IMG/VR virus record: IMGVR_UViG_3300042469_000933 | Coordinates: 1-64,000 of that record | DNA from: a virus | Reading direction: 5' to 3' (one strand) | DNA length: 64,000 bases | Program-made: the position numbers and the translations under genes | Shown: piece after piece, positions 27 to 57,787 of the stretch | Position numbering within the stretch: the first letter of the stretch is position 1 | Layout of the letters: the number at the start of each line of letters is the position of its first letter | The notes under the pieces: model-generated | Seen by the model: only the letters and a program-made list of their open reading frames with translations | Database searches by the model: none | Told to the model about the DNA's origin: nothing

Positions 27-1034
27 ATGGGACTGAAAGAACAACTCGACGAGCTGGACCACTGGCCACTGATGGAACGCATCCTCGGTGCTGAGATCAA
101 GCAGCGAAAGATGTACCGGTCACCATTGCGCGAAGGAGACAAGAACCCTTCATTCGGTTTCTTCAGGAACAAAAGCGGCCAAGCCAGATGGAAGGACTTC
201 GCCATGGACAACGGGGACGTATATCATCTTGCGATGAACATGTACCGTTGCGACTTCAGAACGGCCTTGAAAAAGGTCGCACAGATAGCCGGCATTCTCC
301 CCGGAGAACCCGGAGCCATAAGGCCGATCAAGCTACGGCTCGTCAAGCTTTTCGAGGCGGAAAGAGCGGTATGCTCCTTCGAGGAACGTCCGTTCGCCAC
401 GGAAGACGAGCAATACTGGGGAAGGTATCTGCTCAGCGAAGACCAGCTCAAGCACTCTGGATTCATTGCAGCGGGCTCCTTCACCTTGACCAACGCAGAA
501 GGTAAGACCACGGTCTACCACCACCGGCCAGAGAACCCTATGTACGTCATCCGTATCGGGACCAAAGGTCACATGAAGATGTACCGACCGCTGCACACCA
601 GTAAGAAGTTCCGGTTCCTTGGCAACACGGACCGCAACGACATCTACGGGTATGACCGGGTACATTCGGACAAGCCGCTGCTGATCACAGGCGGACAGAA
701 GGATGCGGAGACCGAGTTTGTGCACCTGGGTGTTCCAGCGATCGCATTCAACTCAGAATCATCGGTACCGGACGAGGATGTCGTGTTCAAGTTGTTCATG
801 CTGGTCAGCCGCCCCATCTTTGTGCTCTACGACAACGACGACGCAGGGCGGGCGTACACCGAACGGGTCTGCAGCAAGTACAACATGCTCACGCCGATTT
901 ACCTCAGTCAGTACAGCCAGCAGAAGGATTTCTCTGCTGTTATCGAAAAGCGAGAGTTACACGTGATTGACCAACTACGCAGTTTCATCAACAAACACAC
1001 AGAGGCATGTTCGCAAACATTGCACCCTTGCTGA
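27..1034 (+). CDS. DNA primase, TOPRIM type (crAss-like)
   Basis: Predicted replicative primase of 335 residues that would lay RNA primers for phage DNA synthesis. The N-terminus (about residues 28-95) has the layout of a CHC2-type zinc-ribbon domain (YRSPLREGDKNPSF, then RWKDFAMDNGDVYHLAM), but the zinc-binding cysteines are missing. The C-terminal half is a TOPRIM fold: LLITGGQKDAETEF around residue 216, IAFNSES near 240, and the metal-binding LYDNDDAG near 270. The usual TOPRIM glutamate (EGxxD) is replaced by GGQKD. From memory, crAss-like primases use a similar GGEKD/GGQKD variant with an FNSE motif. It overlaps the next gene by 28 bases and heads the plus-strand operon. Family assignment is strong; the crAss-like affinity is inference from motifs. 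Confidence 0.82.
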   Translation: MGLKEQLDELDHWPLMERILGAEIKQRKMYRSPLREGDKNPSFGFFRNKSGQARWKDFAMDNGDVYHLAMNMYRCDFRTALKKVAQIAGILPGEPGAIRPIKLRLVKLFEAERAVCSFEERPFATEDEQYWGRYLLSEDQLKHSGFIAAGSFTLTNAEGKTTVYHHRPENPMYVIRIGTKGHMKMYRPLHTSKKFRFLGNTDRNDIYGYDRVHSDKPLLITGGQKDAETEFVHLGVPAIAFNSESSVPDEDVVFKLFMLVSRPIFVLYDNDDAGRAYTERVCSKYNMLTPIYLSQYSQQKDFSAVIEKRELHVIDQLRSFINKHTEACSQTLHPC

Positions 1035-1648
1035 AGTCCATCAAGGTCTCAGTAAGCCTGTCGCAGCGCGACAACGGAGAATACGTGGCCATCATCGTGC
1101 CACGACCACGGTTCCAGACCGGAAACAAGATCCTGAACAACATGGTGCCCCTCATCCGGGTCTACAATACCATTGAGGGAATGGAGCTGGCGTTGGCCAG
1201 TGAAGAGATCGCCAGCAACATCCGTTCATACCACCACGCCGTGGTGAACGATGAAATGTTTAAGAAGGCTCTGGCCAAGAAAGCTGAGCATGAAGATGAC
1301 GGAGAAGGCCCTGCAACGGAAAGCAAGGCTGCACCAGCCAAGCGTGTCCCTAAGGCCAAGGCGAAGGAAGAGCCTGCTCCGAAGGCGGAAGAAGCACCCA
1401 AGGTGAGCAAGGAAGAGAAGCTCATCATCGTGGGCATGAAGAAGCTGGAAGAGCTGATCAATGCCGCGGACAAGGAGAAGGCCAAGGCCAAGTTCAAGGA
1501 GATCGTCGGGGTGTACAACCTCGCGATCAGCGAAGAGGGCGGTTCGGTGGAGATCACGGAAGAAACCCTCACGCAGCTCATGGCCCTGAAGGAAAAGGTA
1601 AAGATCATGCCTGAGCAGAAGGCACTGTTCGACATGAACCTGGATTAA
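1007..1648 (+). CDS. PRTRC system protein E
   Basis: A 213-residue protein matching the layout of PRTRC protein E. An N-terminal beta domain (MFANIAPLLKSIKVSVSL, then AIIVPRPRF) is followed by a lysine/alanine/glutamate/proline-rich linker at about residues 100-145. A short helical C-terminal domain follows (KKLEELINAADKEKAKAKFK, then VYNLAI). Its biochemical role is not known; the family occurs next to the ubiquitin-like and E1/E2-like proteins of PRTRC cassettes. Here it lies directly upstream of the protein C gene (11-base gap) and overlaps the primase by 28 bases. Identification rests on the N-terminal pattern, the architecture and the neighbours. Confidence 0.72.
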   Translation: MFANIAPLLKSIKVSVSLSQRDNGEYVAIIVPRPRFQTGNKILNNMVPLIRVYNTIEGMELALASEEIASNIRSYHHAVVNDEMFKKALAKKAEHEDDGEGPATESKAAPAKRVPKAKAKEEPAPKAEEAPKVSKEEKLIIVGMKKLEELINAADKEKAKAKFKEIVGVYNLAISEEGGSVEITEETLTQLMALKEKVKIMPEQKALFDMNLD

Positions 1649-1659
1649 CACGAACAACC

Positions 1660-1872
1660 ATGGCAGTAGAGATCGAAGCAGCACGACGCAAGTTCAAGCA
1701 CGGTGACGAACTTCTGGAAGATCCAGGAGCGAACCTCTCACCGGAAGAGGTCATGGAGTTCTTCTCCGCACAGTACCCGGAGTTGACCAACGCTTCCATC
1801 GGTACGCCCGAGGTGGCCGATGATGAGACCGTTGTATATCCGTTCATCACCATCATCGGAAAGAAGGGATGA
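1660..1872 (+). CDS. PRTRC system protein C, ubiquitin-like
   Basis: A 70-residue ubiquitin-like protein (Prok_Ub type), the presumed modifier or sulfur-carrier-like partner of the E1/E2-like enzymes downstream. The conserved core is clear: REF-like RRKFKHG, the DPGANLSPEEVMEFF helix, and AQYPELTNASIGTPEV, which matches the YPELxxAxIxGPEV pattern of the family. The chain ends in GKKG, so the last residue is glycine, as expected if the C-terminus is activated, although a di-glycine is absent. The start follows aacaacc with no Shine-Dalgarno. The stop codon overlaps the next start as ATGA. This is one of the safest identifications in the cassette. Confidence 0.85.
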   Translation: MAVEIEAARRKFKHGDELLEDPGANLSPEEVMEFFSAQYPELTNASIGTPEVADDETVVYPFITIIGKKG

Positions 1873-3017
1873 AACGGGTCTTACGAAGAGCACTGAAAAG
1901 GGAAGGGGCGAAAGCCCCTTCTTCTTTTTCACTGACACGTGATTCGTTCTACCGTCAAGAGAATGCCGTAAAGAGCTGGATGAAAAGCAGTGCACGGCTC
2001 CGTGTAGAACCAGCAAGGCAGCGAGAGAACGAGATAGTGGAGCTTCCTAAGGAAGACGTGGAACTGTTCATGGTCAACAGGGTGATGGTCCCTCACGCGG
2101 GAGACATCATGGTGGACTACCTGGAGGAATATGCTGTTGCCTTGGAGCCGTTCTGGCTGTCTGACTACATCAATCGCTTCACCGACAGGGATGATATCTC
2201 AAACCTGATCTGGACAATGGTCGAGTGCCTTATATCTGACGAGAACGGGGCTCTCCACTTTGACCAGACTAACGGGCTGTTCATGTTCTCTGCGTCCGTG
2301 GGTGAGGAACACCAGCACGGAATAAGGATCAACACGTTCCACAAGACAAGATTCTTTCCGTTGGTCATGGCCATTTCGCGAGAAGCGATCAGACACGGAG
2401 TAATGATCAATTGCTGGAAGGACTATTCTGACATGGCGGAAGACACGCTCAGGATACAGGTAAATGAAAGTGAACCGGATGATGAGACATATCTGCGCGC
2501 GTCCCTGAAAGAAGACTGGGCTCAAAAGTGGTTCTCAAAGTTCATGCACAAGTGGTTTGACCTGGAGACAGAAAGCATTGTTTCGTGTGTCAGTAAACTG
2601 AGGATACCAACGCAAGTACTTGATCAAGTCAATTCACTTGCTGCCGCATTTGATGAGTATGGCAAAAAGGCAAAGGGCAACAAGCTCGTAGGAGCATACT
2701 GGCTGGACGAGAACTACAATGATGCAAGCCTCCATCCTGTGTATTGGGCCAGGAACAGCAATTACCTGATGGACCAAATGGATTCAATGATAGACTCCAT
2801 TCACAATGAGGGCTACGTCCATGAATACGGGATCACGCTTGGTGTTGAGAATGGCAAGGTCTACATAAACGAATCGGAAAGAGACCTGTACATCTCTCGT
2901 TACGAACTCAGAAAACAGATCACGGAATGCGTCGAGTCATTAACCCTTCTATTGACACCTGTGCAGAGATCAAGAAGCAACTTGCCTCCAGTCTCGCCAG
3001 AGCAAGAACAGCCCTAG
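1869..3017 (+). CDS. Probable PRTRC system protein F
   Basis: A 382-residue, mostly helical, acidic protein between the genes for PRTRC C and PRTRC B, where protein F usually sits. I recognise it mainly by position; internal motifs are weak (EDVELFMVNRVMVPHAGD near residue 63, FWLSDYINRFTDRDDISNLI near 97). The start at 1869 overlaps the stop of the preceding gene as ATGA. A terminator-like hairpin (1902-1930) falls inside the first 20 codons, so the ATG at 1980 (residue 38, MKSSARLRVEP) is an alternative start. The gene overlaps protein B by 91 bases. Its base composition is somewhat more A+T-rich than the genes upstream. Confidence 0.55.
   Translation: MKRVLRRALKREGAKAPSSFSLTRDSFYRQENAVKSWMKSSARLRVEPARQRENEIVELPKEDVELFMVNRVMVPHAGDIMVDYLEEYAVALEPFWLSDYINRFTDRDDISNLIWTMVECLISDENGALHFDQTNGLFMFSASVGEEHQHGIRINTFHKTRFFPLVMAISREAIRHGVMINCWKDYSDMAEDTLRIQVNESEPDDETYLRASLKEDWAQKWFSKFMHKWFDLETESIVSCVSKLRIPTQVLDQVNSLAAAFDEYGKKAKGNKLVGAYWLDENYNDASLHPVYWARNSNYLMDQMDSMIDSIHNEGYVHEYGITLGVENGKVYINESERDLYISRYELRKQITECVESLTLLLTPVQRSRSNLPPVSPEQEQP
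1902..1930 (+). terminator. Terminator-like hairpin at the PRTRC C/F junction
   Basis: A perfect 8-bp stem GAAGGGGC / GCCCCTTC (1902-1909 and 1914-1921) closed by a GAAA tetraloop and followed by TTCTTTTTC. It has the form of an intrinsic terminator on the plus strand but lies 30-60 bases inside the next reading frame. It could reduce transcription after the E and C genes or act as an attenuator or RNA-stability element. The hairpin is seen directly; its function is inference. Confidence 0.6.
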
Positions 3018-3697
3018 TTCTGTTCTCCAGCCTGTCAACGAAATCATGGACAGGACTGGAACTTTACGACATAGCCCAAGGAGGGCGCCTTACCAACGGA
3101 CGGCCCCTGAACGAAGAGCAACTGAAGTCGTTTGTTGAGGCCGCTTCAAAGACGATCAGAAAGAGGAAGAAGCGATCAGAGCAAACGATCTACGGCATAG
3201 TGGACGAGCGCACACTGTACGTGTCGGCAAAGTCACTGATGTTCGTTGTGCCGGCGGGGCAGAAGACCGTCTTTGTAGGGGACGAGAAGAACTTCAAATC
3301 CATCCCGGTGTTCTTGCCAGCCATGGTGTTCTATTACGGCCTTGATGGAAGCCTAATGGCCTTCTGGTCCAAGACGGACGAGCGAAGCAAGCTGCTTGCA
3401 GAAGAACGAGTGTTGCTGCCAGCGCCAATGCCGAACATTTCAAAGGATGGTGACGTGTGCGTTGGAACATCCATGAAAAAGAAGCACGGAGCGGACATCC
3501 GCGAGTTGCAGAAGTTCGTGACAGACTCCTTCATGGGCTCCGCGTTTAATGAGTGGAGGTCTGAAGAGATAGCAGGAGCAATGGGCTTTGCTGCCAATAC
3601 GAAGGCAACCACCGGAGAAGAGTTCTGGAAGTTGGCCAAGAAGGAGAAGTGGAACAAGTCCAAGAGTTACCGTTGCATTGCAGACATCATCACATGA
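2927..3697 (+). CDS. PRTRC system protein B, E2-like
   Basis: A 256-residue protein with the PRTRC protein B pattern, an E2/UBC-like fold (Prok-E2_D type) thought to receive the activated ubiquitin-like protein. Family landmarks: ALVLFSSL at about residues 29-36, IAQGGRLTNGRPLNEEQL at about 48-65, FLPAMVFYYGLDGSLMAFW near 130, and PAPMPNISKDGDVCVG, where Cys178 is at the position of the candidate catalytic cysteine. FVTDSFMGSAFNEW follows. The chosen start overlaps the upstream gene by 91 bases; no later ATG would keep the conserved N-terminus. The stop overlaps the ThiF start as ATGA, so the two are probably translationally coupled. Confidence 0.78.
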   Translation: MRRVINPSIDTCAEIKKQLASSLARARTALVLFSSLSTKSWTGLELYDIAQGGRLTNGRPLNEEQLKSFVEAASKTIRKRKKRSEQTIYGIVDERTLYVSAKSLMFVVPAGQKTVFVGDEKNFKSIPVFLPAMVFYYGLDGSLMAFWSKTDERSKLLAEERVLLPAPMPNISKDGDVCVGTSMKKKHGADIRELQKFVTDSFMGSAFNEWRSEEIAGAMGFAANTKATTGEEFWKLAKKEKWNKSKSYRCIADIIT

Positions 3698-4470
3698 AAA
3701 AGATCCATAAGACAGACCCGATCCTTCTTGGTGGTGCGCTACGGACAAGCATCGTTCTTGTTGGTTCCGGTGGCACTGGGACGCACATGCTGGAAGGCCT
3801 GGCCATGATGCACAAGTCGCTTGTAGACCTTGGCTACAACGGATTGACCGTATCCGTATACGACAACGACATTGTGGAAGAGCACAACATCGGAAGGCAG
3901 CAGTTCGGATGGGGTGATGTAGGCAGCAACAAGGCGAACAAAGCTGTGATGAGGGTCAACAGGCAGTACGGACTTGACTGGAGAGCTTCTCCACACAGCT
4001 ATGAGTTCAACAGCACTTCGTCACACAACGGCAACATTCTGATCACCGCAACAGACAGCGGACGGTCAAGGAACCTGGCTCAGCGAATGTTCAAGATGTG
4101 CATGGGCAGTAACGCGATAGACGACATTACCGAACACCGCGAGCACCACAACCTGATGCGTACGCTGTACTGGCTTGACCTTGGGAACAATGCCAAAAGC
4201 GGACAATTCGTGCTTGGTGCCCATGATTTACCGACCACCGTTGACCTGTTTGGTGAATACGACGAAACCGACGAAGGCCCATCCTGCTCTGCTGCAGAGA
4301 GCCTTCGTCGGCAAGACCTGTTCGTAAACAAGTCACTTGCAACAATGGCCTGTCACCTTCTCTGGACCTTGTTCAGAAAAGGATGCATCGACTACCATGG
4401 TGGCTTCATGAACCTGGAGACCATGAAGATGCGTCCCATCCTAATCCCTCAACCCAATGGCCCTGTATAA
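3694..4470 (+). CDS. PRTRC system ThiF-family, E1-like enzyme
   Basis: A 258-residue E1/ThiF/MoeB-type adenylating enzyme expected to activate the C-terminus of the ubiquitin-like protein with ATP. The Rossmann nucleotide loop is GSGGTGTH (residues 24-31). YDNDIVEEHNIGRQQF (56-71) carries the aspartate and the NxGRQ arginine that contact ATP. ITATDSGRSRN follows. The PRTRC-specific C-terminal part includes DEGPSCSAAESLRRQDLF with Cys198, the best candidate for the thioester cysteine, then a helix (ACHLLWTLFRKGCIDYHGGF). I chose ATG 3694 because it overlaps the previous stop as ATGA and places the nucleotide loop about 24 residues in. It overlaps the next gene by 14 bases. Confidence 0.88.
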   Translation: MKKIHKTDPILLGGALRTSIVLVGSGGTGTHMLEGLAMMHKSLVDLGYNGLTVSVYDNDIVEEHNIGRQQFGWGDVGSNKANKAVMRVNRQYGLDWRASPHSYEFNSTSSHNGNILITATDSGRSRNLAQRMFKMCMGSNAIDDITEHREHHNLMRTLYWLDLGNNAKSGQFVLGAHDLPTTVDLFGEYDETDEGPSCSAAESLRRQDLFVNKSLATMACHLLWTLFRKGCIDYHGGFMNLETMKMRPILIPQPNGPV

Positions 4471-5140
4471 GTTCGTTTGCGAAATGCACAAAGAGCATGG
4501 CGCGCTTGGATGGAGACAAAAGTCACAACCAGACTTTGATCCGTTAGGAGGAATGGCCGTTGCTCACGACATTCTTGAGCACCTGCCTAATGGGTCTGAA
4601 GCCCCACACGATGAGTTCATGGCTTTGGGGGCGGCTGTGCTGATACGAGGCATGCAAGGCTACTTCATGAACAACACACCAGCGGACAACCTATGTTCTG
4701 ACTTTCCCGACATCTTCAGCCATATCGTTTACCAGGACATAGGACTGTGTGATGCTCCGGTCACCAACCGCCTGCAGGACGAATGGGCGGAAACCATGAT
4801 CAGCGAAACCGTCAACAAAGGCAGGGCCTTGATGATAAGCGAATGGAACATGAGCCCCAAGTTCAACAACGAAGAACCGGGAATGTCGATCCATGAACTG
4901 GACGTATACCTGCACCATGTCAAGGGATGGATGCGCATTGGGTTCCGCAAAGCGCGTAAACGGTACAATGGCCGTGTTCGTGACTTTGAGTTCACTTACC
5001 TGTTCAAAGAGATCGAAAAGGAAGCGGACAAGGCCTTGAAGAATGCCGAAGAACAAGATGAGTTGCACGTGCGACTAGTACGCAATCGCGTTGATGTGAA
5101 GCACCTCTCTGCTTACGAACTCTACCCACGAGAAGACTAA
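4457..5140 (+). CDS. Unknown protein translationally linked to the PRTRC E1
   Basis: A 227-residue soluble protein that I cannot assign. It starts inside the end of the ThiF gene (14-base overlap), so it is probably co-translated with the PRTRC cassette. A conserved-looking N-terminal block reads DFDPLGGMAVAHDILEHLPN (residues 26-45), followed by ALGAAVLIRG near residue 57. This has His, Asp and Glu residues but no JAMM motif, so it is not the JAB peptidase (protein A) of standard cassettes. The C-terminal third is helical and charged (FRKARKRYNG, EIEKEADKALKNAEEQDEL). It could be an accessory or substrate of the modification system, or an unrelated early gene. Confidence 0.75.
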   Translation: MALYKFVCEMHKEHGALGWRQKSQPDFDPLGGMAVAHDILEHLPNGSEAPHDEFMALGAAVLIRGMQGYFMNNTPADNLCSDFPDIFSHIVYQDIGLCDAPVTNRLQDEWAETMISETVNKGRALMISEWNMSPKFNNEEPGMSIHELDVYLHHVKGWMRIGFRKARKRYNGRVRDFEFTYLFKEIEKEADKALKNAEEQDELHVRLVRNRVDVKHLSAYELYPRED

Positions 5141-7729: not shown

Positions 7730-7963
7730 ATGAACAACAAGACCCTGGACATGAACAAGCTCTTCACGATTACATGCACAAAGCTGGACTGGAAGCGAAA
7801 GTGGTGGCAAGTGTGGAAACCCAAAGTGTACTACACCACGCACTACATGGCTCATGTCAATCGAACAGGAGAGGCCTTCAAGTGCCCACCAGAGATACTT
7901 CCTGTTCTGCACACACTACTCGAAGCGATTGAAGCCGAAGTGCGGCACGAACTTTCTCATTGA
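7730..7963 (+). CDS. Small protein of unknown function
   Basis: A 77-residue basic and tryptophan-rich protein (KLDWKRKWWQVWKPKVYYTT near residue 18). A helical C-terminus follows (EILPVLHTLLEAIEAEVRHE). It starts two bases after the preceding stop and ends two bases before the PP-loop gene. No family is recognised. Confidence 0.6.
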   Translation: MNNKTLDMNKLFTITCTKLDWKRKWWQVWKPKVYYTTHYMAHVNRTGEAFKCPPEILPVLHTLLEAIEAEVRHELSH

Positions 7964-7964
7964 C

Positions 7965-8690
7965 ATGGAACTGATCATCAACTTTTCCGGCGGCAAAGAC
8001 AGCTCCCTTATGCTGGCTCTGCTATGCGAGCAGTATCCGGATGTTCCCAAGCGAGTAGTCATGGCAGACACTGGCTGGGAGCATCCGGACGCTGTAGAAT
8101 GGAGCCGTGATATCGTGTCGCTATTCGGACTGGAGCTGGAAGTGGTGCAAGCTGTTCGAGAAAGTGGCGAGGCCAACAGCTTTTTCAAGATGGTGGAACA
8201 CCGCGGCATGTTCCCCGGCATGCAGCAGCGCCAATGCACCAGCGACCTAAAGCGCGGACCCATCCAAAAGATGATACGCAACATCCCATCTACTGAGAAA
8301 CGCCCAGTGTACATCAACTGCATCGGCTACCGGAGCGAAGAAAGCCGGGACCGCGCCAAGAAGAAGTGCATCGTGCTGAACAATCTTTTGACCAACAGCA
8401 AGCGCATCGTATGGGACTATCACCCCATTCTTGCGTGGAAAAAGGCAGACGTGTTCCGCTACCTCAAAGAGCGGCTGATACCCGTGCATCCAGTGTACAA
8501 CCACTTGGGCCGGTTCAGCTGCAGAGTGTGCATCTACATGACTCCGCATGATCTGAACCAAGTCGCTAAGTTTGACCCTGAGGCAATCAGTATCATTGAG
8601 AAAACAGAGAAGGACATCGGCTTCACGATGTTCATGAACGGACCCATAGGAACTCTCATCAACACAGACCACAAAAAAACACCATCCTAA
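7965..8690 (+). CDS. PAPS-reductase-like PP-loop protein
   Basis: A 241-residue member of the adenine nucleotide alpha-hydrolase/PP-loop superfamily, closest in pattern to phosphoadenylylsulfate reductases and the DndC-type phage proteins. The PP-loop is FSGGKDSS (residues 7-14). VVMADTGWEHPDAVEW is the usual second block, and RQCTSDLKRGPIQ matches the substrate-binding CTxxLKxxP region. IGYRSEESRDRA and the C-terminal FSCRVCIYM supply further family features. In phages these proteins may act in sulfur metabolism or DNA/RNA modification, and the actual substrate cannot be read from the sequence. I use ATG 7965 because the upstream 37 codons overlap the previous gene and lack family similarity. 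Confidence 0.8.
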   Translation: MELIINFSGGKDSSLMLALLCEQYPDVPKRVVMADTGWEHPDAVEWSRDIVSLFGLELEVVQAVRESGEANSFFKMVEHRGMFPGMQQRQCTSDLKRGPIQKMIRNIPSTEKRPVYINCIGYRSEESRDRAKKKCIVLNNLLTNSKRIVWDYHPILAWKKADVFRYLKERLIPVHPVYNHLGRFSCRVCIYMTPHDLNQVAKFDPEAISIIEKTEKDIGFTMFMNGPIGTLINTDHKKTPS

Positions 8691-15496: not shown

Positions 15497-18336
15497 GGTG
15501 CAGCAGTTGTTGAGGTCGGAGCGCAGTCAGCGCAACGCTTGGACGATACCCGGAGTGTGGTGATCATGCGGGCCAGCATTTCAAGGTCCTGCAGCTGAGC
15601 TGGTCCGTAATCAGGAATGCCGGTCCAACGGTAGCGCAGGGAGAACACCGCGGCTTCGATTTCGCGGCTGACGATCGACATCCGGGTCAGCTCGTCCCGG
15701 TTGTAGTCAGCGATCTGGGAACCAGCCGGCGTTGCACACAAGTCACTGTTGCAGAAAATGGCGTTGGCCAGACGGAGCTTGCAGTTCTCCATGTCGCACA
15801 AGTCAATGACCTCGGTCTTCCACACCTGTCCGCCAGGAGCCGTCACAGTGATCAAGTATACCGTGTCATCGTCGTTCACGAACTGGAACGGGAAGTTGCT
15901 GTCCGCGATCGACTGGTTGAGCAGAACCGTGTTGTCGGACAGGTCCTTGATCTCTACTTGGTAGAGTTGGCCCGTGTTCAGTGCATTGGCCGGACGGTCC
16001 AAGCTGATCACGTAGGTGTGGCAGTCCGTCTTCGTCACCTTGAAGCCATTGCACACGTCCAGCGTGTACTGGCAGGTCTTGGCGCCACCGCAATCTTGAG
16101 CTTCGATGGTCACTTGATAGCGACCATATTGCTCGATAAGAACGCTGAAGTCCGTTTCAACCAGACCATCCACACAAGCAACGGTGCTGTCGTAGACCGT
16201 CACCGGAAGTCCGGTCGTGGCATCGATGCGTTGAACCAGCGTGCGCACGGTGCAAGGGCATTCCGTGAACACGGTCACTTCAAGCAATTCACCAGTCTCT
16301 GCAAAGTTTTCTTCGGTGGTGACCGTTGTCAGGTCCGAACCGGAATCATAGACCACGGTGGCCACGGTGTACAGTCCGCTGTCATCACTGAACACGGTGA
16401 TCACTGAGCCGATGGGAAACAGCGTGGTGCGGTCGCCTGTAAAAGTCAGGGTCAGCGGGCATCCGGTGCCTGGCTCTGTTTTTTCTTCCAATGGAGTGAG
16501 CGCCTCTTCCATGTGAAAGGGGAATTGCGCCTGAATGGAGAAATCCAGCGAATTGCCAGCGCTCACGCATCCGGAACAGGTTGTACCAAGCACAACGCCG
16601 TTCACACGAAGCTGAGTGGAACAGTCCATGCAGATGCGATGCGTCTCCTGTGGCAAGCAATCGTAGCACGTGTTGTGCGAAGACACCAAAGTCAACGCTT
16701 GGGACACTAAGCAGTTGCCCTGGCCGCACACGCGGAAGCATTGGTCCGGATACTCCGCAACACGGACGATCGCACCCGGATAGATGTTGCTGAGATCTGT
16801 CGTGGTCACGCCGAGCAGGCCAATACTGATGGCCGAACAAGTAACGCTTACATCAGCAGGATCAGCAGATTCCAAGTAGAAGGCACCAGCATTGCCCGGA
16901 ACAACCGGGTTATCCAGTGGCGGGATCCGACTAGCACGATATGACGTGGTGGAGTTGATGAAGTAGACCAGTCCGCCAATGAATTCCTCCAGTCGCTCAC
17001 TGGGCAACAACGAAGTGCTGATCATTGCACCGTAATTCACTGAAAGCACGCCGTCAATGGTGATACCAATGACCTGGCTGGCCACAGCTGGGTCCAGCAT
17101 CTGAACAGAGATCAATGAACGAGGCCCGTGACAGGCCAACCGCTTGAATCCTGGCGAGGCAGTATGAATGATGTCATTGGTCAGACAGTTGACCAATTGC
17201 ACGGCATCAATGCACGTACCGTTGTCTGTATTAAAGCTCTCGTCGTAATTGCAGGAAGTCGGGTCAGTACATCCAGCTACAGAAACGTCTGCAATAGAAG
17301 AGTGGTGAAGCAACCGTTCTGTTCTGGCAAAAAGCTGGAAGGTTGTAGTGCTTATTCCACCATCCACCGAACTGTTCAAGCCTGGGCGATATGGGAATAA
17401 GGAAGTACTCAGCTGCGAGGATCCAGCAAAGACCGCAAAGGCATTGAGAGCCGAATGCGTGTAGTAGTCCACAAGGCTCGGAGAGGCTGTGGCAAGCGAT
17501 GGGTTCGTGAGGTACATCGTTATCGCACTACCCAACGGAGCACTTTGTCCATGAGCACGAAGAGCATTGTATCCACCCACCAGAACACGATTGCTTCTCC
17601 ACACGATATCATCGAAGCGATTGTTCGCATCAGATCCACCGCCGTATCCTGTCGCCGGATATCCAGGAAACGCCGTGGCTATGGCCGCATTATGGTCCCA
17701 AACAGCAGTAGTTGTGAAGTACGGAAGCAGGGCGTCGATGTTCAGCAGATATCTCAGTCGATGAGACGTGAGAAAAATCAGTTCCGAGATCGGCCCACCC
17801 TGATTCGCCACACGGCGCGGAGCCTCTGCTGGAAGAAGCATAGAGCTCAGGTCGGTCGTTACCCACGTCAGGCCACCATCATCGGTGCGATGCAAGAATC
17901 CACCGACAAGCGAACCGCTCAACAAGATGACACCTTGGTCCGTACCCTTCCAGACCATATCCATCAACGGCCCGGCACCAACGGTCGCCGGAAGCGAAAT
18001 GCCGACGAACGTTGCTCCGCTGTTGCTACTGAACATGAGCGCTGAAGAAGTCAGCACATACAGTTCGTTCTCTGTAGTCCACTGGACCTGACGGATGGTA
18101 CCGGCAGCGCCCAGGGCAGCAGAAGTCCAGTTATCACCACCATCCACGCTGATAGCGACCTTGTTGTCACCTACAACGGCCATCTTCAGCGGGTCCTCCG
18201 CATTGATAGCAGTGCGCTCATAATCGTGCAGTTCGTTGTAGACGGAGGTAAGTCCGTTCGGAACTGCGTCTAGTCCGGTGTAGAAGTTCGATGTGCCGAG
18301 ACCGTCCTTGGTCAAGGCGAGAATTCGTGTTGCCAT
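15481..18336 (-). CDS. Tail adhesin with Asp-box propeller and Cys-rich region
   Basis: A 951-residue protein. Residues 1-340 contain several Asp-box repeats (SVDGGDNWT near 65, SSNSGATF near 105, TDDGGLTWV near 150), pointing to a sialidase-type beta-propeller. GCTDPTSCNYDESF follows near residue 355, a motif frequent in secreted flavobacterial proteins. The rest is rich in paired cysteines (CVSAGNSL, CPCTVRTLVQRI, ECPC) and all-beta segments. The C-terminus is TSTTAAPCATC. It probably forms part of the distal tail and contacts surface glycans or proteins; this is inferred from architecture and position. It starts five bases after the giant gene ends. Confidence 0.75.
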   Translation of the reverse strand: MATRILALTKDGLGTSNFYTGLDAVPNGLTSVYNELHDYERTAINAEDPLKMAVVGDNKVAISVDGGDNWTSAALGAAGTIRQVQWTTENELYVLTSSALMFSSNSGATFVGISLPATVGAGPLMDMVWKGTDQGVILLSGSLVGGFLHRTDDGGLTWVTTDLSSMLLPAEAPRRVANQGGPISELIFLTSHRLRYLLNIDALLPYFTTTAVWDHNAAIATAFPGYPATGYGGGSDANNRFDDIVWRSNRVLVGGYNALRAHGQSAPLGSAITMYLTNPSLATASPSLVDYYTHSALNAFAVFAGSSQLSTSLFPYRPGLNSSVDGGISTTTFQLFARTERLLHHSSIADVSVAGCTDPTSCNYDESFNTDNGTCIDAVQLVNCLTNDIIHTASPGFKRLACHGPRSLISVQMLDPAVASQVIGITIDGVLSVNYGAMISTSLLPSERLEEFIGGLVYFINSTTSYRASRIPPLDNPVVPGNAGAFYLESADPADVSVTCSAISIGLLGVTTTDLSNIYPGAIVRVAEYPDQCFRVCGQGNCLVSQALTLVSSHNTCYDCLPQETHRICMDCSTQLRVNGVVLGTTCSGCVSAGNSLDFSIQAQFPFHMEEALTPLEEKTEPGTGCPLTLTFTGDRTTLFPIGSVITVFSDDSGLYTVATVVYDSGSDLTTVTTEENFAETGELLEVTVFTECPCTVRTLVQRIDATTGLPVTVYDSTVACVDGLVETDFSVLIEQYGRYQVTIEAQDCGGAKTCQYTLDVCNGFKVTKTDCHTYVISLDRPANALNTGQLYQVEIKDLSDNTVLLNQSIADSNFPFQFVNDDDTVYLITVTAPGGQVWKTEVIDLCDMENCKLRLANAIFCNSDLCATPAGSQIADYNRDELTRMSIVSREIEAAVFSLRYRWTGIPDYGPAQLQDLEMLARMITTLRVSSKRCADCAPTSTTAAPCATC

Positions 18337-18341
18337 TGGGG

Positions 18342-50551: not shown

Positions 50552-52003
50552 TTACTGACGGGACTTGATGAGCTGTGCGAAGCCCATCGGGTTGCGCATG
50601 ATCACGCCGCTCTCGCTGAGGATGTGGACCTGCTTGCCGTCAACAGGCGAGCTGGCCATCATCATCTTGCCTCCGCTGCCTTCGCCAGCGCCCACAACAG
50701 GACCGTCGCCGGTCATGCCGTTGATGACGCGCTGGACGAAACGACGATCGGTATCGCCATTGCCCAGGGTCAGCAGTTGCACGTTGGGGTTTCCGCCCAC
50801 CGTGTTGCCGAGGTTCACGAAGAACGCGCGCTCGCTCATGTAGTTGTTGCCGTACGAGTCACGGTCCGATGGACGGAACGGAGCATCGAAGGCAGGACAA
50901 CGCATGAAGTGCAGGCGGACGTTGCCCAGCGTGTAGTAGCTGAACGAGGTCTTGATGCCCATGCCGTCAGCGGTCTGCTCGACCAGGGGAACGGGGTTCT
51001 CCTTCAGCACGTCACGCAGGAGGCGCTGCAGGTTGTTGTAGAAGCGCTGACCGCCGCATACGGCCACTTCCAACATGCCGTCAGAGGTCTGCTGCAACTG
51101 CATCTGCTCCAGCACGTTCTCGATCTGACGGATCGTGAGCGTATTGTAGTGGAAGCGCAGGGACGAATCGCCCTGTGCGATGATACCGTTGCCCATGATC
51201 AGGTCACGGCCGTCATCGTCCTGCACATACACGCGATCGTTCGCGTCCACGGTAGCGCGTCCGAACAGCAACTGGTGCTCCAGTGCCATGGCCCAACGCT
51301 CGTACATGTCCAGGTTTTGCTGGTACTCCCAGGTACGAACACCGTTGTGCTCCAACCACACTTTCGTCGCGGCAGCGGAACCGGAGATCGTGTGCTTCAT
51401 GCGCTGAATACCGATGAACTCGGTGTGCCACTCATGGTAGGTGCTCTTTTCTCCGGCGTCCTCCGACAGTTCGGGGAACATGGTGTGACCGAAGCCGATC
51501 TCCTTACCAGCTGCGATAATCGCAGGGTTGCAGTACGCGTTCTCCCGGTTGTGCACCAGCTTCACGCGGTAGGTCCATGCACCGGAGCCGGCCTGGGTCT
51601 TGCCCAGCACATGCAACAGCGTCTGACGATCCACCAGTTCCAAGTTGTCGTTCTTGGAGAAGTAGTTCGTGTTCAGCGTAACGGTGAACTCAGCACCATT
51701 GAGACCCGGGGTCGAACCGCCCGTGTTGCTCAAGATGATGCCTTTGCGGATGGGGTAGCCCTTGAGGGGCCACATCACCTTCCGGTTGCCGACCACGCGG
51801 AAGTTCTCCGTGTCCATGCCCGCGTACAGGCCCTGGCTGGTGAGTCCGCGCCGTCCGAGGAAGGAGCTGAAGGTTGAATAGCTGCTCTCATACAGCGAGA
51901 GCACGTTGGTCATGATCTCCGGCTTGCTCAGAGCAGCGCGGAGCAGCATGTTGGTAGTTGTGGTCTTATCCGCGTCGTGCGTGACCGTTCCGAGAATTCG
52001 CAT
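50552..52003 (-). CDS. Major capsid protein, HK97 fold, crAss-like
   Basis: A 483-residue protein with the crAss-like capsid pattern. It has a helical N-terminus (LLRAALSKPEIMTNVLSLYE), then SSFLGRRGLTSQGLYAG, a long central region with a W...E (HNGVRTWEYQQNLDMYERWA) helix, GMGIKTSFSYYTLGNVRLH, and the C-terminal KQVHILSESGVIMRNPMGFA. That end resembles the SESG.I..NP..FG end of this family. A preceding scaffold-like gene and the portal upstream complete the head module. It would form the icosahedral shell. Confidence 0.85.
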   Translation of the reverse strand: MRILGTVTHDADKTTTTNMLLRAALSKPEIMTNVLSLYESSYSTFSSFLGRRGLTSQGLYAGMDTENFRVVGNRKVMWPLKGYPIRKGIILSNTGGSTPGLNGAEFTVTLNTNYFSKNDNLELVDRQTLLHVLGKTQAGSGAWTYRVKLVHNRENAYCNPAIIAAGKEIGFGHTMFPELSEDAGEKSTYHEWHTEFIGIQRMKHTISGSAAATKVWLEHNGVRTWEYQQNLDMYERWAMALEHQLLFGRATVDANDRVYVQDDDGRDLIMGNGIIAQGDSSLRFHYNTLTIRQIENVLEQMQLQQTSDGMLEVAVCGGQRFYNNLQRLLRDVLKENPVPLVEQTADGMGIKTSFSYYTLGNVRLHFMRCPAFDAPFRPSDRDSYGNNYMSERAFFVNLGNTVGGNPNVQLLTLGNGDTDRRFVQRVINGMTGDGPVVGAGEGSGGKMMMASSPVDGKQVHILSESGVIMRNPMGFAQLIKSRQ

Positions 52004-53459: not shown

Positions 53460-55883
53460 TTAACGATCACTTGGTTCGTTCTTCGGACGCCCCGAAGATA
53501 AAGGCTTTCCACTACCGCCTTTTATGGCGACCTCCAGTGCTCGAATGCGAGCATCCAGGTCAGTGCCTCGCGCTTGTTCCTGCAGGAATGCCATTTCCAC
53601 TTGTGCATTCTGACTGGCCACCTGAAGCTTGGTCTGGTTCTGACTATCAGCAATGCTCGTCTTCACGCCGGCTTCCTGCTGAATGCGCTGCTGCTCCAAT
53701 TGCAGTTCAGCCTGCTTGATCTGACCCATCAGCGCCTCACCGTCCGTGAGCTGCTTCTTGAACATTAGGTCGATGTCGCTTTGCATTTTCAGCTTCTCCT
53801 GCTCACCACGTTGCTGCTGCTCCATGTTCTGCTGCTGCAGGGTGTTCATCACCTCTTCGTAGTAGCTCACTTTGTCCTGCAGCTCATCCAGGTTCTTGGC
53901 TCGGAACGCATCCACAAGCTGGCTCATGGTCACGGTGCCTCCGGTAAATCCGGCGCCCATCAACTGAGTGATGCGGTCCATGTCCGCCTGTGTCTTGTCT
54001 TCGTCGTCGAAGAAGCATTCGAACTTGGCGCCCTTTAATTCTTCCTTGGACAGCTTGAAGATGACCTGACGGCGGTCCCCGGCGATGTACTGGCCGCGCT
54101 TGCCTTCCGCCCACACGTGCGGGATGATGCTCAGCACACGGTCCACGACACGCGAGACAATGCGCTGGTGCTTGTTGAACAGAACTTTGGTTGTGAGGTT
54201 GGATTGGACGATCGCTTGCTTCTGCGTACCCACCTGATCGTTCCCGGATACTTCACCAAGGCGTTGCGGAGGGATTCCGATGACCCGGCCGGCGAGACGC
54301 TCAAGGCTTTCGAGGATGAACGCGAGCTGCTGGATGCTTTGACCGAACGAAAGGTCGTAGGTCATCCACTGGTTGTAGTTGGATGGACGACCCGTGCCGC
54401 CTGGCTGCGTGGGGTCGATCCAGCCGAGACCCATCTTGAACTGGTACATCCATTCCTCCATGGACATATCCTTCGGTTTCTGAGTCTTGTCCATGATGAC
54501 CCCCTTGATACCGCCCAGGGCGATCAGGAGCTCCATTTGGTAGTAGACCAGGTTGTAGAGAATCTGTACGTCCTTCACTGCCCAGACGCGGCTGTATGGC
54601 CTACGATCAAGGCCGTTGTAGTTGAAACCCACATAGCGACCGTATGCGCGACCGATGCGGTCAATGTCGCGGAACTGGAACGGAAGCTTTCCGCAGCGAA
54701 CGAAGATGTCCGAGCTGATACGGATACCGCCCCACCATTCCGTGGCGTAACGGCGCTGATACTTCTTCTCCGGGTCGTGCGCTTCCTCGTCGCGAACAAG
54801 GCGCATTTCATCATCCTCCTGCACGAACTTGATCTCCTTCACGGACTTCCATTCGCAGACCGAGACTTCAACCAGGTCGGTGCCGTAGATCGCGGAGCCG
54901 GAGTACACGTCTGGACTGCAAGCGTCTCCGGAGCCAGTGGCGTTGGAGTTGTACCAGCCGTAACTGGCCATACCGTTGCCAAAGGAGTACGTGGCGTTGT
55001 AGCGCGTCTCCATCATGGAACGCTCTTCCTCTCCCATCATGTGGCCATACTCGTCCATGATCTGAGCAGGGGTCATCCAGCGCTTCTCCACAATGCCTGG
55101 ACACTCGTCCGTGTAAAATGCATCGTTGCTGGAGAGGTAGTAGAAGTTCAGCGGGTTCACCTTCCGGATGGAAGGGTCTTTGCCGAGGTACACGTCCTCA
55201 ATGCAATAGACCTCTTGGTCCACCACCATGAGGTCTTGAAAGCCTTCGTCGAAAATGTCCTTCCACCGGTACTTCCGGATCAGGTACTCCAGACCATCGG
55301 TCATAGCCACTTCCTTCCGAGTCTTTCCGCGCATCCGATACTCGCGCTCCAGGATCGATACCTGTTGATTGATTAGGCTCTCTCCGCGACTGACCTCTTG
55401 CTGAACCTTGGCCAGTTCCATTTCGGCCATCCGGTACTGTCCGGGATTTGCCTGAGCTTGCTGTTTCTGCTCTTCCAGGCTCAGCTTCAGCATGTACACC
55501 CGCTCCTGCGCATCGTTGGTAGCGCTCATCACGGAGTCCACGATTTTCCTGGCCACGTTGTCCGTCTTGTCCTGCAGGGAATCGGAATCCGTGGAGTAGA
55601 CCCGTGGCTCCAGCGGTCGGCTTTCCTGCGTGGACTTCAGCAGGTCGAAAAAGGGCCGGATGATGGGCATGAACCTGACCCTTGCCGGCATCTTGTGCTG
55701 GTCAGTTCCGGTGAGGTAATCGAAATCGGACTCGTCCTGTGAGCCGTAGTAAAGCTTGTAGCACAGGGCGTCTTTTGAATGAGCATCGCCCGATGAGCCC
55801 ACCATTCGGCAGAGCCGGTTCACGTTGTTCTTGCACCATTCGAGAGTTTTCCCGTCAGGTGGCAGTAGCTGTGTTGGTAGCAT
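53460..55883 (-). CDS. Portal protein, crAss-like
   Basis: An 807-residue portal. The N-terminus (HKMPARVRFMPIIRPFFDLL near residue 62) and the CEWKSVKEIKFV, FVRCGKLPFQFRDI, GRYVGFNYNGLDRRPYSRVW and RVIGIPPQRLGEVSGNDQVG segments give the clip and wing pattern typical of portals (I.PQ..GE..g....t is widespread). A Gln/Glu-rich coiled C-terminus (residues 680-780) forms the crown or barrel. It lies 17 bases after TerL. It would form the dodecameric DNA entry ring. Confidence 0.85.
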   Translation of the reverse strand: MLPTQLLPPDGKTLEWCKNNVNRLCRMVGSSGDAHSKDALCYKLYYGSQDESDFDYLTGTDQHKMPARVRFMPIIRPFFDLLKSTQESRPLEPRVYSTDSDSLQDKTDNVARKIVDSVMSATNDAQERVYMLKLSLEEQKQQAQANPGQYRMAEMELAKVQQEVSRGESLINQQVSILEREYRMRGKTRKEVAMTDGLEYLIRKYRWKDIFDEGFQDLMVVDQEVYCIEDVYLGKDPSIRKVNPLNFYYLSSNDAFYTDECPGIVEKRWMTPAQIMDEYGHMMGEEERSMMETRYNATYSFGNGMASYGWYNSNATGSGDACSPDVYSGSAIYGTDLVEVSVCEWKSVKEIKFVQEDDEMRLVRDEEAHDPEKKYQRRYATEWWGGIRISSDIFVRCGKLPFQFRDIDRIGRAYGRYVGFNYNGLDRRPYSRVWAVKDVQILYNLVYYQMELLIALGGIKGVIMDKTQKPKDMSMEEWMYQFKMGLGWIDPTQPGGTGRPSNYNQWMTYDLSFGQSIQQLAFILESLERLAGRVIGIPPQRLGEVSGNDQVGTQKQAIVQSNLTTKVLFNKHQRIVSRVVDRVLSIIPHVWAEGKRGQYIAGDRRQVIFKLSKEELKGAKFECFFDDEDKTQADMDRITQLMGAGFTGGTVTMSQLVDAFRAKNLDELQDKVSYYEEVMNTLQQQNMEQQQRGEQEKLKMQSDIDLMFKKQLTDGEALMGQIKQAELQLEQQRIQQEAGVKTSIADSQNQTKLQVASQNAQVEMAFLQEQARGTDLDARIRALEVAIKGGSGKPLSSGRPKNEPSDR

Positions 55884-55900: not shown

Positions 55901-57787
55901 CTACAAACGTACCATTTTACCGTTCTTCACTGCGTAACGACGCAGCGTGAAGGGTTCCTCCTGGACCACTTCCCTCACGTTGCTGATGACATCGTTCTTG
56001 GCTAGAATGCACAGCATGTAGGAGATCGTTTCGTCGCAGTTCACGTCCGAACGATACTTGATCAGCTTGTCCACCAGTTCTATGTCAAGAAGGCGCTCTG
56101 CACCGCCGTTCTTCAGGTCGTCAGCGGTCATCTGCTCCCAGACATACTTCGTGTTCGGGTCGATACCATCGCGGTTCTGCACATTGCTGCTGGCCATATT
56201 GGCGTAAGCAATGCGCGGACGGCTTTTGATAATGCCTCCGAACCCGTGCGTCCGAAGCCAGTCGAAGATGAGGATGTTCGAATACTCGATCATGGCCCCG
56301 GCGTAACCGTAGAGCACACACATCTTCGCCACGTTCTCGTAGAACTCCTTAGACGTTTCCGGGCGTTGGATCAGTTTGCAGACCGGAGTGTTGTCAATGG
56401 GATCGCTGACCTGGTTGAACATCTTGTACACCGTGCACGCTCCGAAGGATGCGCGCTCCGGGTCAGCGGCTGTGTCTTTGTCGTAGGAGTCCACACCAGC
56501 CAAGTACAAGCCAATGGGCACTTTCCCGTTCGGCTCTTTGAAGGGTGGCTCAGCCATCCGGAACGGACCATTTAGCTCGTCGTCCACCCACTCAGCGCCC
56601 AGCACGTTGCCATGGCTGTCCTTTACCCAGTCAATGCGCACGGAGCGAATGCGGTCCCGGTGCTCTGCGTACTTCAGCAGCTCTGAACGGCGCTTCAGCA
56701 ACAGGCCGACCGGGAACACATTGCCGTTGGGCACCATCAACGCTTCCTCCGGGGTCAGAGGGAACTGCGTGATCTCCTTCAGCAAGTTCTCCTTGTCGTT
56801 CTCCAGCTTGGCCCGACGCTCCAGCAATACCTCACGGGCCTTTTCGCGATGACTGTTCCCTTCATCATCCGTGACCTTGGTGAAGTAATCGCCTGGCACG
56901 AAGTAGGCAATACGGTTCAGCTTGCGCGTAGGCGCATCATCCAGTATCTGATCTTCAAATGTATTCTCGTAGGACATGAACCCGTAACGCTCCGGATTGT
57001 AGAACATCTGGCCCACCTCGTCAATAGACGTGTTGCTCTCACCACCCGTACCGATCAACAGGGACAAGCCGGTCTTCTTTCCCATTTCCTCCATGGCCGG
57101 ATCCAGGTAGGCCTTGACCGCTTTGATGTCCTTGAACTTTCCAACTTCTTCGTACAACGCAAGCGAAGGCGAAAGACCGACCAAAGCCTGCTCACTGGAT
57201 GCGGTCCGGCGCTCGATCGTGGACAGCATGCCCATGATGTGCTCGATGCCGTTCTCATCGGTCTCTTTGTAGGACGCACGGAAGAAGTCATTGCTGTCCG
57301 GAGAGCGGTTCTTGTAGAACTCCGTACCGGCCGCATAATCCAGCCCAGCCTCTACGAAGCGCATGGTGTTCACGCTGTACTTCTCTTCCCCTGAAGTGAC
57401 CAGACTATTGCTGTCCGGAACGAAAGAGAACTCATAGCCAACGACCTGGCTGCTCTTATAGGAGAAACCAGCCTGACGACGCTTCAGGACCAGCATGTCC
57501 TTGCCTTCTTTGAAGCATCGCTCCAACTCCCAGTAGAACTCAAAGTCCATGTCCAGAAACCGCGGCGCCGTGATGCGCTTACCCTTGCCCTTTACGTTGG
57601 CCCTGATAGGCCAGAAGTTCAGATAGTGGTAGTGCCGTCCGGTGATTTTTACGCCACCAACTTCGTAGCCGTTCAGGCAACGGTCGTTCTGAGTATCCCA
57701 GTATTCATGCCACTCATAGGAGTTCTTTGGGGCCTGCGTAAGCCCCTCCATGATAACCGGCGAGAAGTACCGGGTGTTAACGAACAT
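55901..57787 (-). CDS. Terminase large subunit (TerL)
   Basis: A 628-residue packaging ATPase-nuclease. Walker A-like KRRQAGFSYKSS is at residues 102-113 and Walker B SLALYEEVG at about 208-216. The coupling motif is IGTGGES near 247. The RNase H-like nuclease starts with LAGVDSYD near 430 (first catalytic Asp) and has further acidic residues toward the C-terminus (VDKLIKYRSDVNCDETISYM). The order TerL, portal, head genes is canonical. It overlaps the upstream gene by 11 bases. Confidence 0.92.
   Translation of the reverse strand: MFVNTRYFSPVIMEGLTQAPKNSYEWHEYWDTQNDRCLNGYEVGGVKITGRHYHYLNFWPIRANVKGKGKRITAPRFLDMDFEFYWELERCFKEGKDMLVLKRRQAGFSYKSSQVVGYEFSFVPDSNSLVTSGEEKYSVNTMRFVEAGLDYAAGTEFYKNRSPDSNDFFRASYKETDENGIEHIMGMLSTIERRTASSEQALVGLSPSLALYEEVGKFKDIKAVKAYLDPAMEEMGKKTGLSLLIGTGGESNTSIDEVGQMFYNPERYGFMSYENTFEDQILDDAPTRKLNRIAYFVPGDYFTKVTDDEGNSHREKAREVLLERRAKLENDKENLLKEITQFPLTPEEALMVPNGNVFPVGLLLKRRSELLKYAEHRDRIRSVRIDWVKDSHGNVLGAEWVDDELNGPFRMAEPPFKEPNGKVPIGLYLAGVDSYDKDTAADPERASFGACTVYKMFNQVSDPIDNTPVCKLIQRPETSKEFYENVAKMCVLYGYAGAMIEYSNILIFDWLRTHGFGGIIKSRPRIAYANMASSNVQNRDGIDPNTKYVWEQMTADDLKNGGAERLLDIELVDKLIKYRSDVNCDETISYMLCILAKNDVISNVREVVQEEPFTLRRYAVKNGKMVRL

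What the first reader, a model, noticed from the sequence alone, without database searches (positions are those of the whole stretch)
1007..4470. PRTRC ubiquitin-like cassette (E, C, F, B, ThiF) in a crAss-like phage genome
Five consecutive genes carry the components of the PRTRC system, better known from plasmids: an E1-like ThiF, an E2-like protein with a candidate catalytic Cys (Cys178), a ubiquitin-like protein ending in Gly, and proteins E and F. ATGA overlaps link C-F and B-ThiF. The JAB peptidase (protein A) and the ParB-like member are not seen here. A phage-borne conjugation system beside a primase could modify host defence, capsid or replication proteins, or shield replication. I am not aware of a function established for it in phages.
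Basis: partly seen in the sequence, partly recalled or inferred. Interest (0 to 1): 0.85.

Follow-up and report, generated by a model that had tools for sequence, protein, structure and literature searches.

The report
Ubiquitin-like tagging cassette in crAss-like phage
A relative of the most abundant human gut viruses carries, overlapping its DNA primase gene, a set of genes for attaching a small ubiquitin-like protein to other proteins, a set otherwise known mainly from bacterial plasmids, and better-known cousins of this virus keep a different ubiquitin-like tagging set in the same place.

Summary
The cassette is real. The window is a 64,465-bp crAss-like phage fragment (terminase, portal and capsid families). 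Right after a crAss-type primase it carries PRTRC proteins in the order E-C-F-B-ThiF. C, B and ThiF are placed by curated profiles and keep Gly70, Cys178 and Cys198. E is placed through relatives. F is placed by position only.

The missing JAB protein A and ParB are not a gap: 0 of 73 Bacteroidota loci have a JAB near ThiF.

Three further crAss-like records carry E-C-F-B-ThiF, and with a fourth fragment their ThiFs form one clade with the window (97/85, long branches). In two of these the next sizeable gene is DnaB helicase.

In phiCrAss001-type phages the slot after the primase instead holds a different cassette: X1 (ubiquitin fold in a model, invariant Ser-Gly), X2 (E2-like, suggestive), a JAB protein and an E1, in the same order in 23 of 29 IMG/VR loci.

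Best reading: two different ubiquitin-like systems serve one job in the replication block, probably tagging a replication-fork or replication-interfering protein. Activity and target are untested. The window's B lacks the downstream active-site histidine that most PRTRC E2s have.

New variant of a known kind.

The parts
27..1034 (+). crAss-type DnaG-family primase (335 aa), immediately upstream, overlapping E by 28 bp
   Evidence: phrog_12622 DNA primase 2.5e-22; tblastn to crAss-like primases in 76 phage records
1007..1648 (+). PRTRC protein E homologue (213 aa), divergent
   Evidence: hhalign 7.5e-5 against 58 E N-termini; blastp 2.5e-4 to L046 E, which passes TIGR03741; no direct curated hit
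1660..1872 (+). PRTRC protein C, ubiquitin-like modifier (70 aa) ending GKKG
   Evidence: TIGR03738 57.9 bits over cut-off, PF14454 1.6e-18; about 53% identical to Parabacteroides plasmid C
1867..1869 (+). codon of C-terminal Gly70, the expected conjugation end
   Evidence: alignments
1869..3017 (+). gene in the place of PRTRC protein F (382 aa); identity by position only
   Evidence: order E-C-F-B-T; profile tests negative
2927..3697 (+). PRTRC protein B, E2-like (256 aa)
   Evidence: PF14460 Prok-E2_D 6.1e-11 over cut-off, TIGR03737 1.4e-14 below cut-off
3458..3460 (+). codon of candidate catalytic Cys178 of B
   Evidence: invariant and in the set
3694..4470 (+). PRTRC ThiF family protein, E1-like (258 aa)
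   Evidence: TIGR03736 224 bits over cut-off, PF00899 over cut-off
3763..3780 (+). nucleotide loop GSGGTG (residues 24-29) of ThiF
   Evidence: invariant glycines
4285..4287 (+). codon of candidate E1 thioester Cys198 (PSCS motif) of ThiF
   Evidence: invariant
50552..52003 (-). crAss-type major head protein (evidence of phage identity)
   Evidence: phrog_11589 2.2e-27
53460..55883 (-). crAss-type portal protein (evidence of phage identity)
   Evidence: phrog_6547 9e-75
55901..57787 (-). crAss-type terminase large subunit (evidence of phage identity)
   Evidence: phrog_6681 3.1e-80; Crassvirales among the top hits, 26-30% identity

Best explanation
The five genes are a phage-lineage form of the PRTRC core, E-C-F-B-ThiF, used by the phage as a dedicated ubiquitin-like conjugation system in its replication block. 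Inferred mechanism: ThiF adenylates Gly70 of C and takes it as a thioester on Cys198; B receives it on Cys178 and passes it to an amino group of a target. C already ends in a free Gly, so no processing peptidase is needed, and with no JAB partner the tag is probably not removed by the phage. E and F act as target-recruiting or regulatory subunits. The most likely target is a protein at or acting on phage replication (primase, helicase, or a host factor or defence protein meeting the fork). Shown here: gene content, order, conserved residues, phage identity, recurrence in three more crAss-like records, adjacency to replication genes, and a different Ubl/E2-like/JAB/E1 cassette in the same slot in other crAss-like phages. 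Inferred: enzymatic activity, the roles of E and F, the target, and the benefit.
For: Profile hits and invariant catalytic residues. crAss-like identity. Three of 50 PRTRC-bearing virus records tested also have crAss-type terminase and portal, with PRTRC C over cut-off in all. ThiFs of the window, L038, L046, L086 and L044 form one clade, 97/85. The window cassette overlaps the primase gene; in L086 and L044 the next sizeable gene after ThiF is DnaB, and L044 also carries a Sak4-like protein nearby. In phiCrAss001-type phages the same slot holds X1 (ubiquitin fold in the model, residues 1-86, then invariant Ser-Gly), X2 (invariant HSH...C), JAB and E1, with primase-X1-X2-X3-E1 all found in order in 23 of 29 IMG/VR loci. 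None of the five PRTRC records has X2 or JAB, and none of the six E1-cassette records tested has PRTRC C.
Against: No activity is shown. The window's B lacks the downstream histidine that Iyer et al. 2006 call absolutely conserved and place near the E2 active site; it is also missing in L046, L086 and L044. F is unproven. X2 as an E2 rests on motif and middling structural scores: Foldseek gave nothing at E<=0.001 and the best VIA Z is 5.7. X1 and C, and X2 and B, do not align by profile, so likeness of the two cassettes is of kind, not demonstrated descent. Co-location with replication genes could be plain operon drift, and L038 and L046 show no replication gene directly beside ThiF.
Confidence: 0.55

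Rival explanations
1. Counter-defence: the cassette tags and disables host antiviral proteins, and its place next to replication genes only gives early expression.
For: Primase-adjacent genes are likely early; Ubl conjugation is an established theme in phage-host conflict (CBASS, listed). The slot exchanges between different systems, as conflict genes do.
Against: The phiCrAss001-type cassette is kept in order across 23 of 29 loci, more like a core function than a variable anti-defence gene. No defence target is known.
Confidence: 0.25
2. Plasmid-like maintenance: the cassette came from Bacteroidota plasmids or ICEs and supports persistence of the phage as an extrachromosomal element.
For: PRTRC ThiF relatives occur in 385 plasmid records and Bacteroidota elements; PRTRC is linked to a ParB-family protein in other bacteria.
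Against: No PRTRC ParB in any of the five phage records. The phage ThiFs form their own clade rather than nesting in the plasmid/ICE ones (long branches).
Confidence: 0.12
3. Sulfur carrier rather than protein tag: ThiF makes a C-terminal thiocarboxylate on C, used by the PP-loop (PAPS-reductase-like) enzyme at 7854-8690.
For: The window has a PAPS-reductase-like PP-loop gene 3.4 kb downstream; E1-like proteins with JAB and PAPS reductase occur together elsewhere (Iyer 2006, passage).
Against: A dedicated E2-like protein with an invariant Cys makes little sense for sulfur transfer. Homologues of the window's PP-loop protein lie within 6 kb of ThiF in only 2 of 166 PRTRC loci.
Confidence: 0.06
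4. Decaying or inactive passenger: E2 chemistry is lost (no histidine, divergent E and F).
For: Loss of the conserved histidine in the window, L046, L086 and L044; unrecognisable F.
Against: All catalytic ThiF residues, the B cysteine and the C glycine are intact in all five phage cassettes, which are only 33-41% identical to one another in ThiF, implying long-term purifying selection; no frameshifts.
Confidence: 0.07

Closest known systems
PRTRC cassette of Bacteroidota plasmids and genomes (e.g. Parabacteroides distasonis plasmid NZ_OY725769, L003)
   Same: Same five-gene order E-C-F-B-ThiF, no JAB protein A, no PRTRC ParB; C ends in KG; catalytic residues aligned
   Different: ThiF only 36-42% identical and in a separate phage clade; B lacks the downstream histidine; E and F strongly divergent; located in the replication block of a phage
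PRTRC cassette of Pseudomonadota plasmids and Burkholderia phage BgVeeders33 (L005, L007)
   Same: E, C, F, B and ThiF in the same order
   Different: These have a JAB protein A between B and ThiF, and the Aromatoleum plasmid has a ParB upstream; BgVeeders33 is a phage with Mu-type tail genes, not crAss-like
Primase-linked X1-X2-JAB-ThiF genes of phiCrAss001, cr126_1 and relatives (annotated 'metalloprotease domain' and 'thiamine biosynthesis ThiF')
   Same: Same slot after the primase; ubiquitin-fold protein, E2-like protein, E1-like protein; E1 aligns with PRTRC ThiF (hhalign 98%, 1.1e-13 over 109 columns)
   Different: X1 and X2 show no sequence relation to C and B; has a JAB peptidase and an X1 with a long tail after Ser-Gly, so probably needs processing
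Bil and type II CBASS Ubl-conjugation operons of bacterial defence (recalled; CBASS papers seen only as a search listing)
   Same: E1-E2-Ubl logic
   Different: No JAB, no CD-NTase or effector; encoded by the phage, not the host

Membership tests
PRTRC system | Protein C (ubiquitin-like) over TIGR03738 cut-off, ending in Gly | tested here: met
   57.9 against 45.95 bits; GKKG
PRTRC system | ThiF over TIGR03736 cut-off with nucleotide loop and Cys | tested here: met
   224 against 144.75 bits; residues aligned
PRTRC system | Protein B of the Prok-E2_D family with aligned Cys | tested here: met
   PF14460 42.8 against 25 bits; Cys178
PRTRC system | Protein B over the strict TIGR03737 equivalog cut-off | tested here: not met
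   54.1 against 131.45 bits; the Bs of L038, L046, L086 and L044 are also below it, so this is a cut-off, not a defining trait
PRTRC system | Histidine downstream of the E2 Cys (Iyer et al. 2006, type 6d operon, which I equate with PRTRC) | tested here: not met
   Asn in the window. Family-wide 137 of 146 Bs have F[STDN]H and two more have it by eye; seven lack it, including non-phage Bs L113 and L152
PRTRC system | Protein E upstream of C | tested here: met
   hhalign 7.5e-5 and blastp 2.5e-4 through L046; no direct TIGR03741 hit
PRTRC system | Protein F (alpha-helical) between C and B | tested here: inconclusive
   right size and place, no sequence match
PRTRC system | Gene order E-C-F-B-ThiF on one strand | tested here: met
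PRTRC system | JAB protein A and ParB-related protein | tested here: inconclusive
   absent from the 64.5-kb record and the other phage records, but all are fragments; also absent from the Bacteroidota members tested
Crassvirales-like phage | crAss-type terminase, portal and major head protein | tested here: met
   phrog_6681 3.1e-80, phrog_6547 9e-75, phrog_11589 2.2e-27
Crassvirales-like phage | Placement in a named family | not tested
   no phage tree was built; terminase 26-30% identical to many families alike
Bil / CBASS Ubl conjugation | JAB deubiquitinase or CD-NTase partner in the operon | tested here: not met
   no Prok-JAB in the record; no CD-NTase among the profile hits of the seven proteins scanned

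The most novel reading that the evidence does not exclude
crAss-like phages keep a dedicated slot in their replication block for ubiquitin-like protein conjugation, filled in different lineages by two systems with unrelated modifier and E2 components (PRTRC E-C-F-B-ThiF, or X1-X2-JAB-E1) exchanged in situ, as their DNA polymerases are. Tagging a protein at the phage replication fork would then be a core, so far unnoticed, step in the life of some of the most abundant human gut viruses.
Probability: 0.4. Interest if true: 0.9.

Novelty: new variant of a known kind. Interest (0 to 1): 0.72.

Why it matters
I know of no tested function for PRTRC, and I found no paper on it in phages (searches listed in the report). 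A recurrent, replication-linked form in crAss-like phages, plus a second Ubl/E2-like/JAB/E1 cassette in culturable phiCrAss001-type phages, makes the question 'what does a phage tag with a ubiquitin-like protein?' directly testable in Bacteroides laboratory strains. It would extend ubiquitin-like conjugation from bacterial defence and plasmids to the core genome of a dominant gut virus order.

Tried and rejected
Single-protein scans of viral contigs with the window ThiF and terminase found nothing; alignment queries worked. HMMs of E and F made by automatic MAFFT missed the window; trimmed E N-termini gave E=0.067. In one search the hhalign scores of F from L044 and L046 are not valid, since those sequences are in the target alignments, and the L038 score against the larger F set may be inflated in the same way; only the window F, the 333-aa L086 ORF, L038 against the Bacteroidota set, and the decoys count. 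X1 against C and X2 against B by profile: nothing. X1 and X2 profiles found no convincing solved structure by sequence; the B profile's top solved-structure hit was a ubiquitin-conjugating enzyme at only E=0.076. Foldseek of X2 gave no hit at E<=0.001. Window primase profile against L038, L046 and L086: none; their primase, if any, was not found.

Considered and rejected: a contig chimera of phage and plasmid (primase and E overlap by 28 bp, and the cassette recurs in three other crAss-like records); L085 as a fourth further crAss-like record (only a weak partial portal hit, no terminase hit).

Limits: 50 of the 79 IMG/VR PRTRC loci were tested for crAss terminase; the other 29, which I took to be like the Burkholderia-type prophages listed, were not. 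The ThiF tree used 60 rows after dropping rows over 0.75 alike; window, L086, L044, L085 and L155 are long branches, and the five-row clade was named after seeing the tree. The 4-row set without L044 is not rejected (p-AU 0.517). E ORFs were taken from the longest start, so some are overextended. Of the 29 cassette loci, six lack one or more members: L187, L189, L192 and L202 are cut by the locus end, and L206 and L208 gave no hit for X1 or for X1 and X2; L197 and L198 are the same sequence, and L200 has the contig length of phiCrAss001.
Full report
What is there. The window is positions 1-64000 of a 64,465-bp virus record classed as linear; its ends share no repeat. It is a crAss-like phage: terminase phrog_6681 (3.1e-80), portal phrog_6547 (9e-75) and major head protein phrog_11589 (2.2e-27), with terminase 26-30% identical to many Crassvirales alike. 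At its left end a DnaG-type primase (27-1034; phrog_12622 2.5e-22) is followed on the same strand by E (1007-1648), C (1660-1872), F (1869-3017), B (2927-3697) and ThiF (3694-4470). Primase and E overlap by 28 bp, C and F and also B and ThiF by ATGA, F and B by 91 bp.

Profile tests. C is PRTRC_C (TIGR03738, 57.9 bits, cut-off 45.95) and Prok_Ub; ThiF is PRTRC_ThiF (TIGR03736, 224 bits, cut-off 144.75); B is Prok-E2_D (PF14460, 42.8 bits, cut-off 25), with TIGR03737 at 54.1 bits under its strict cut-off of 131.45. C is about 53% identical to the C of a Parabacteroides plasmid. The C-terminal Gly70, the B cysteine Cys178 and the ThiF nucleotide loop and Cys198 align with plasmid members and with other phage members.

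E and F. Neither hits a curated profile. For E, a profile of 58 E N-termini ranks the window ORF first of 820 but at E=0.067; hhalign gives 7.5e-5 over 87 columns, against 0.0016 over 23 columns for the best of 10 decoys; and blastp to the E of L046 gives 2.5e-4 over 208 aa, that E itself passing TIGR03741. I accept E. For F, all tests are negative or at noise. A Bacteroidota plasmid F also fails TIGR03742, and Iyer et al. 2006 (PMC1779556, passages seen) call the alpha-helical protein of their type 6d operon rapidly diverging. I equate 6d with PRTRC from its content; the name PRTRC does not occur in that paper. So F rests on position alone.

The missing A and ParB. Of 166 loci with a PRTRC ThiF, 155 have C upstream on the same strand. 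JAB lies within 3 kb of ThiF in 0 of 73 Bacteroidota genome loci, 2 of 2 Pseudomonadota genome loci and 41 of 79 IMG/VR loci. Whole-record searches find no Prok-JAB and no PRTRC ParB in the window's record or in the records of L038, L046, L086 and L044, and no PRTRC ParB in two Bacteroidota plasmids, while it is found in two plasmids of other phyla. The window's set is therefore the Bacteroidota-type core, not a truncated cassette, although all these virus records may be fragments.

Not alone among phages. An alignment query found 84 relatives in IMG/VR, 79 distinct loci kept. Of 50 of these tested, 3 records (L038, L046, L086; 76-81 kb) also hold the crAss terminase and portal, two of them the head protein, and all carry PRTRC C over cut-off. 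The fragment L044 (18 kb, no terminase found) carries the same cassette. The ThiFs of the window and these four form one clade with support 97/85 outside the plasmid and ICE sequences, with the caveat of long branches. In L044 the next ORF after ThiF, and in L086 the next but one, is DnaB helicase; L044 also has a Sak4-like protein and a polymerase clamp. L038 has a helicase about 4 kb away, and L046 ends soon after the cassette. Among named phages, PRTRC C appears in 2 of 50,697 records: Burkholderia phage BgVeeders33, which holds E-C-F-B-A-ThiF without being annotated so, and an unverified gut contig.

The other cassette. In phiCrAss001, cr126_1, bajarodcaudo virus 1, Fpv3 and Dulem virus 41 the region after the primase holds X1, X2, X3 and a ThiF-family E1; in Fpv3 a uracil-DNA glycosylase gene lies between primase and X1. 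E1 relatives occur in 74 phage records. X3 has a weak Prok-JAB match. An IMG/VR scan gave 29 E1 loci; 23 of them contain primase, X1, X2, X3 and E1 in that order. X1 has invariant Ser89-Gly90 in 20 sequences; its model (mean pLDDT 77.7) matches ubiquitin-like folds over residues 1-86 (VIA Z up to 8.8, ubiquitin 7.8). X2 has invariant YxHSH and CxGxGP in 20 sequences; its model (pLDDT 81.8) has no Foldseek hit at E<=0.001, but the best VIA rows include an RWD domain (Z 4.4), many UFC1 E2 entries (Z 3.4-4.0) and a bacterial E1-E2-Ubl complex chain (Z 2.8), led by a BRISC subunit at 5.7. That is suggestive of an E2-like fold, not proof. The crAss E1 and PRTRC ThiF are related (hhalign 98%, 1.1e-13 over 109 columns), but X1-C and X2-B are not by sequence. 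The two cassettes did not co-occur: X2 in 0 of 5 PRTRC phage records, PRTRC C in 0 of 6 E1-cassette records and in 0 of 2 crAss-like records with neither.

Interpretation. Two ubiquitin-like systems with unrelated modifier and E2 components in one genomic slot, beside primase or DnaB, suggest a shared job tied to replication. Yutin et al. 2021 (PMC7886860, passages) describe in-situ swaps of DNA polymerase families in crAss-like phages, a precedent for such exchange; their text does not contain ThiF, ubiquitin or JAB. I propose that ThiF activates C, B carries it, E and F recruit the target, and the target is a replication protein or something that interferes with replication. C needs no processing (free Gly end) and the phage offers no JAB, so tagging may be one-way; the X1 cassette, with a tail after Ser-Gly and a JAB, would be processed and perhaps reversible. 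These steps are inference.

A result against. Iyer et al. 2006 state that this E2 family has an absolutely conserved downstream histidine placed near the classical active site. Of 146 Bs with the Cys motif, 137 match F[STDN]H and two more have it by eye; seven lack it, including L086, L044 and L046. The window, counted apart, has Asn. The phage E2s may use another residue, or may be impaired.

Literature. Searches: PRTRC (26 papers; none on phage function by title), crAss with ThiF (30 papers, 20 listed), crAss-like with ubiquitin (6), crAss001 with ThiF (0), bacteriophage, JAB and E2-like terms (3), crAss-like with primase and uracil-DNA glycosylase (2), ubiquitin-like with phage, BilA, CBASS or JAB (1,089, 12 listed), Crassvirales with ubiquitin (2), crAssphage with E1-like, ubiquitin-like or ThiF (826, 12 listed). 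By titles and listings none describes a Ubl cassette in crAss-like phages, but the library holds open-licence papers only and most listings were not opened.

Verdict. A genuine, divergent PRTRC core in a crAss-like phage lineage: new variant of a known kind. Interest 0.72.

Noticed in passing
L170 10160-15746 (cr108_1, Pipoluvirus): Soon after its primase this crAss-like phage has an ATP-grasp S6-glutaminyl-transferase-like gene, glutamine amidotransferases and a COOH-NH2 ligase, another peptide-bond-forming module in the slot that holds Ubl cassettes in its relatives.
   Followed up: no
L008 4284-5210 (cr126_1 gp31, X1): The ubiquitin-fold protein X1 of cr126_1 carries a ribosomal L7/L12 C-terminal domain in its tail (PF00542 5.1e-12).
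   Followed up: no
window 7854-8690 (+): PP-loop / PAPS-reductase-like gene with an SGGKDS motif downstream of the cassette; homologues lie within 6 kb of ThiF in 2 of 166 PRTRC loci.
   Followed up: partly
window 18342-36650 (-): A single 6102-aa open frame, the giant protein seen in crAss-like genomes (the comparison with crAss-like genomes is recalled).
   Followed up: no
window 4457-5140 (+): Gene right after ThiF, phrog_7111 of unknown function, with relatives in Synechococcus and Pseudomonas phages but no hit in named crAss-like phages.
   Followed up: partly
L007 (Burkholderia phage BgVeeders33, OK665841) 16258-20744: Complete E-C-F-B-A-ThiF PRTRC set in a phage with Mu-type tail genes, annotated only as hypothetical proteins and a 'dinucleotide-utilizing enzyme'.
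   Followed up: partly
window 1007-4470: No Shine-Dalgarno-like motif seen before the cassette genes, as expected for a Bacteroidota host (by eye).
   Followed up: no
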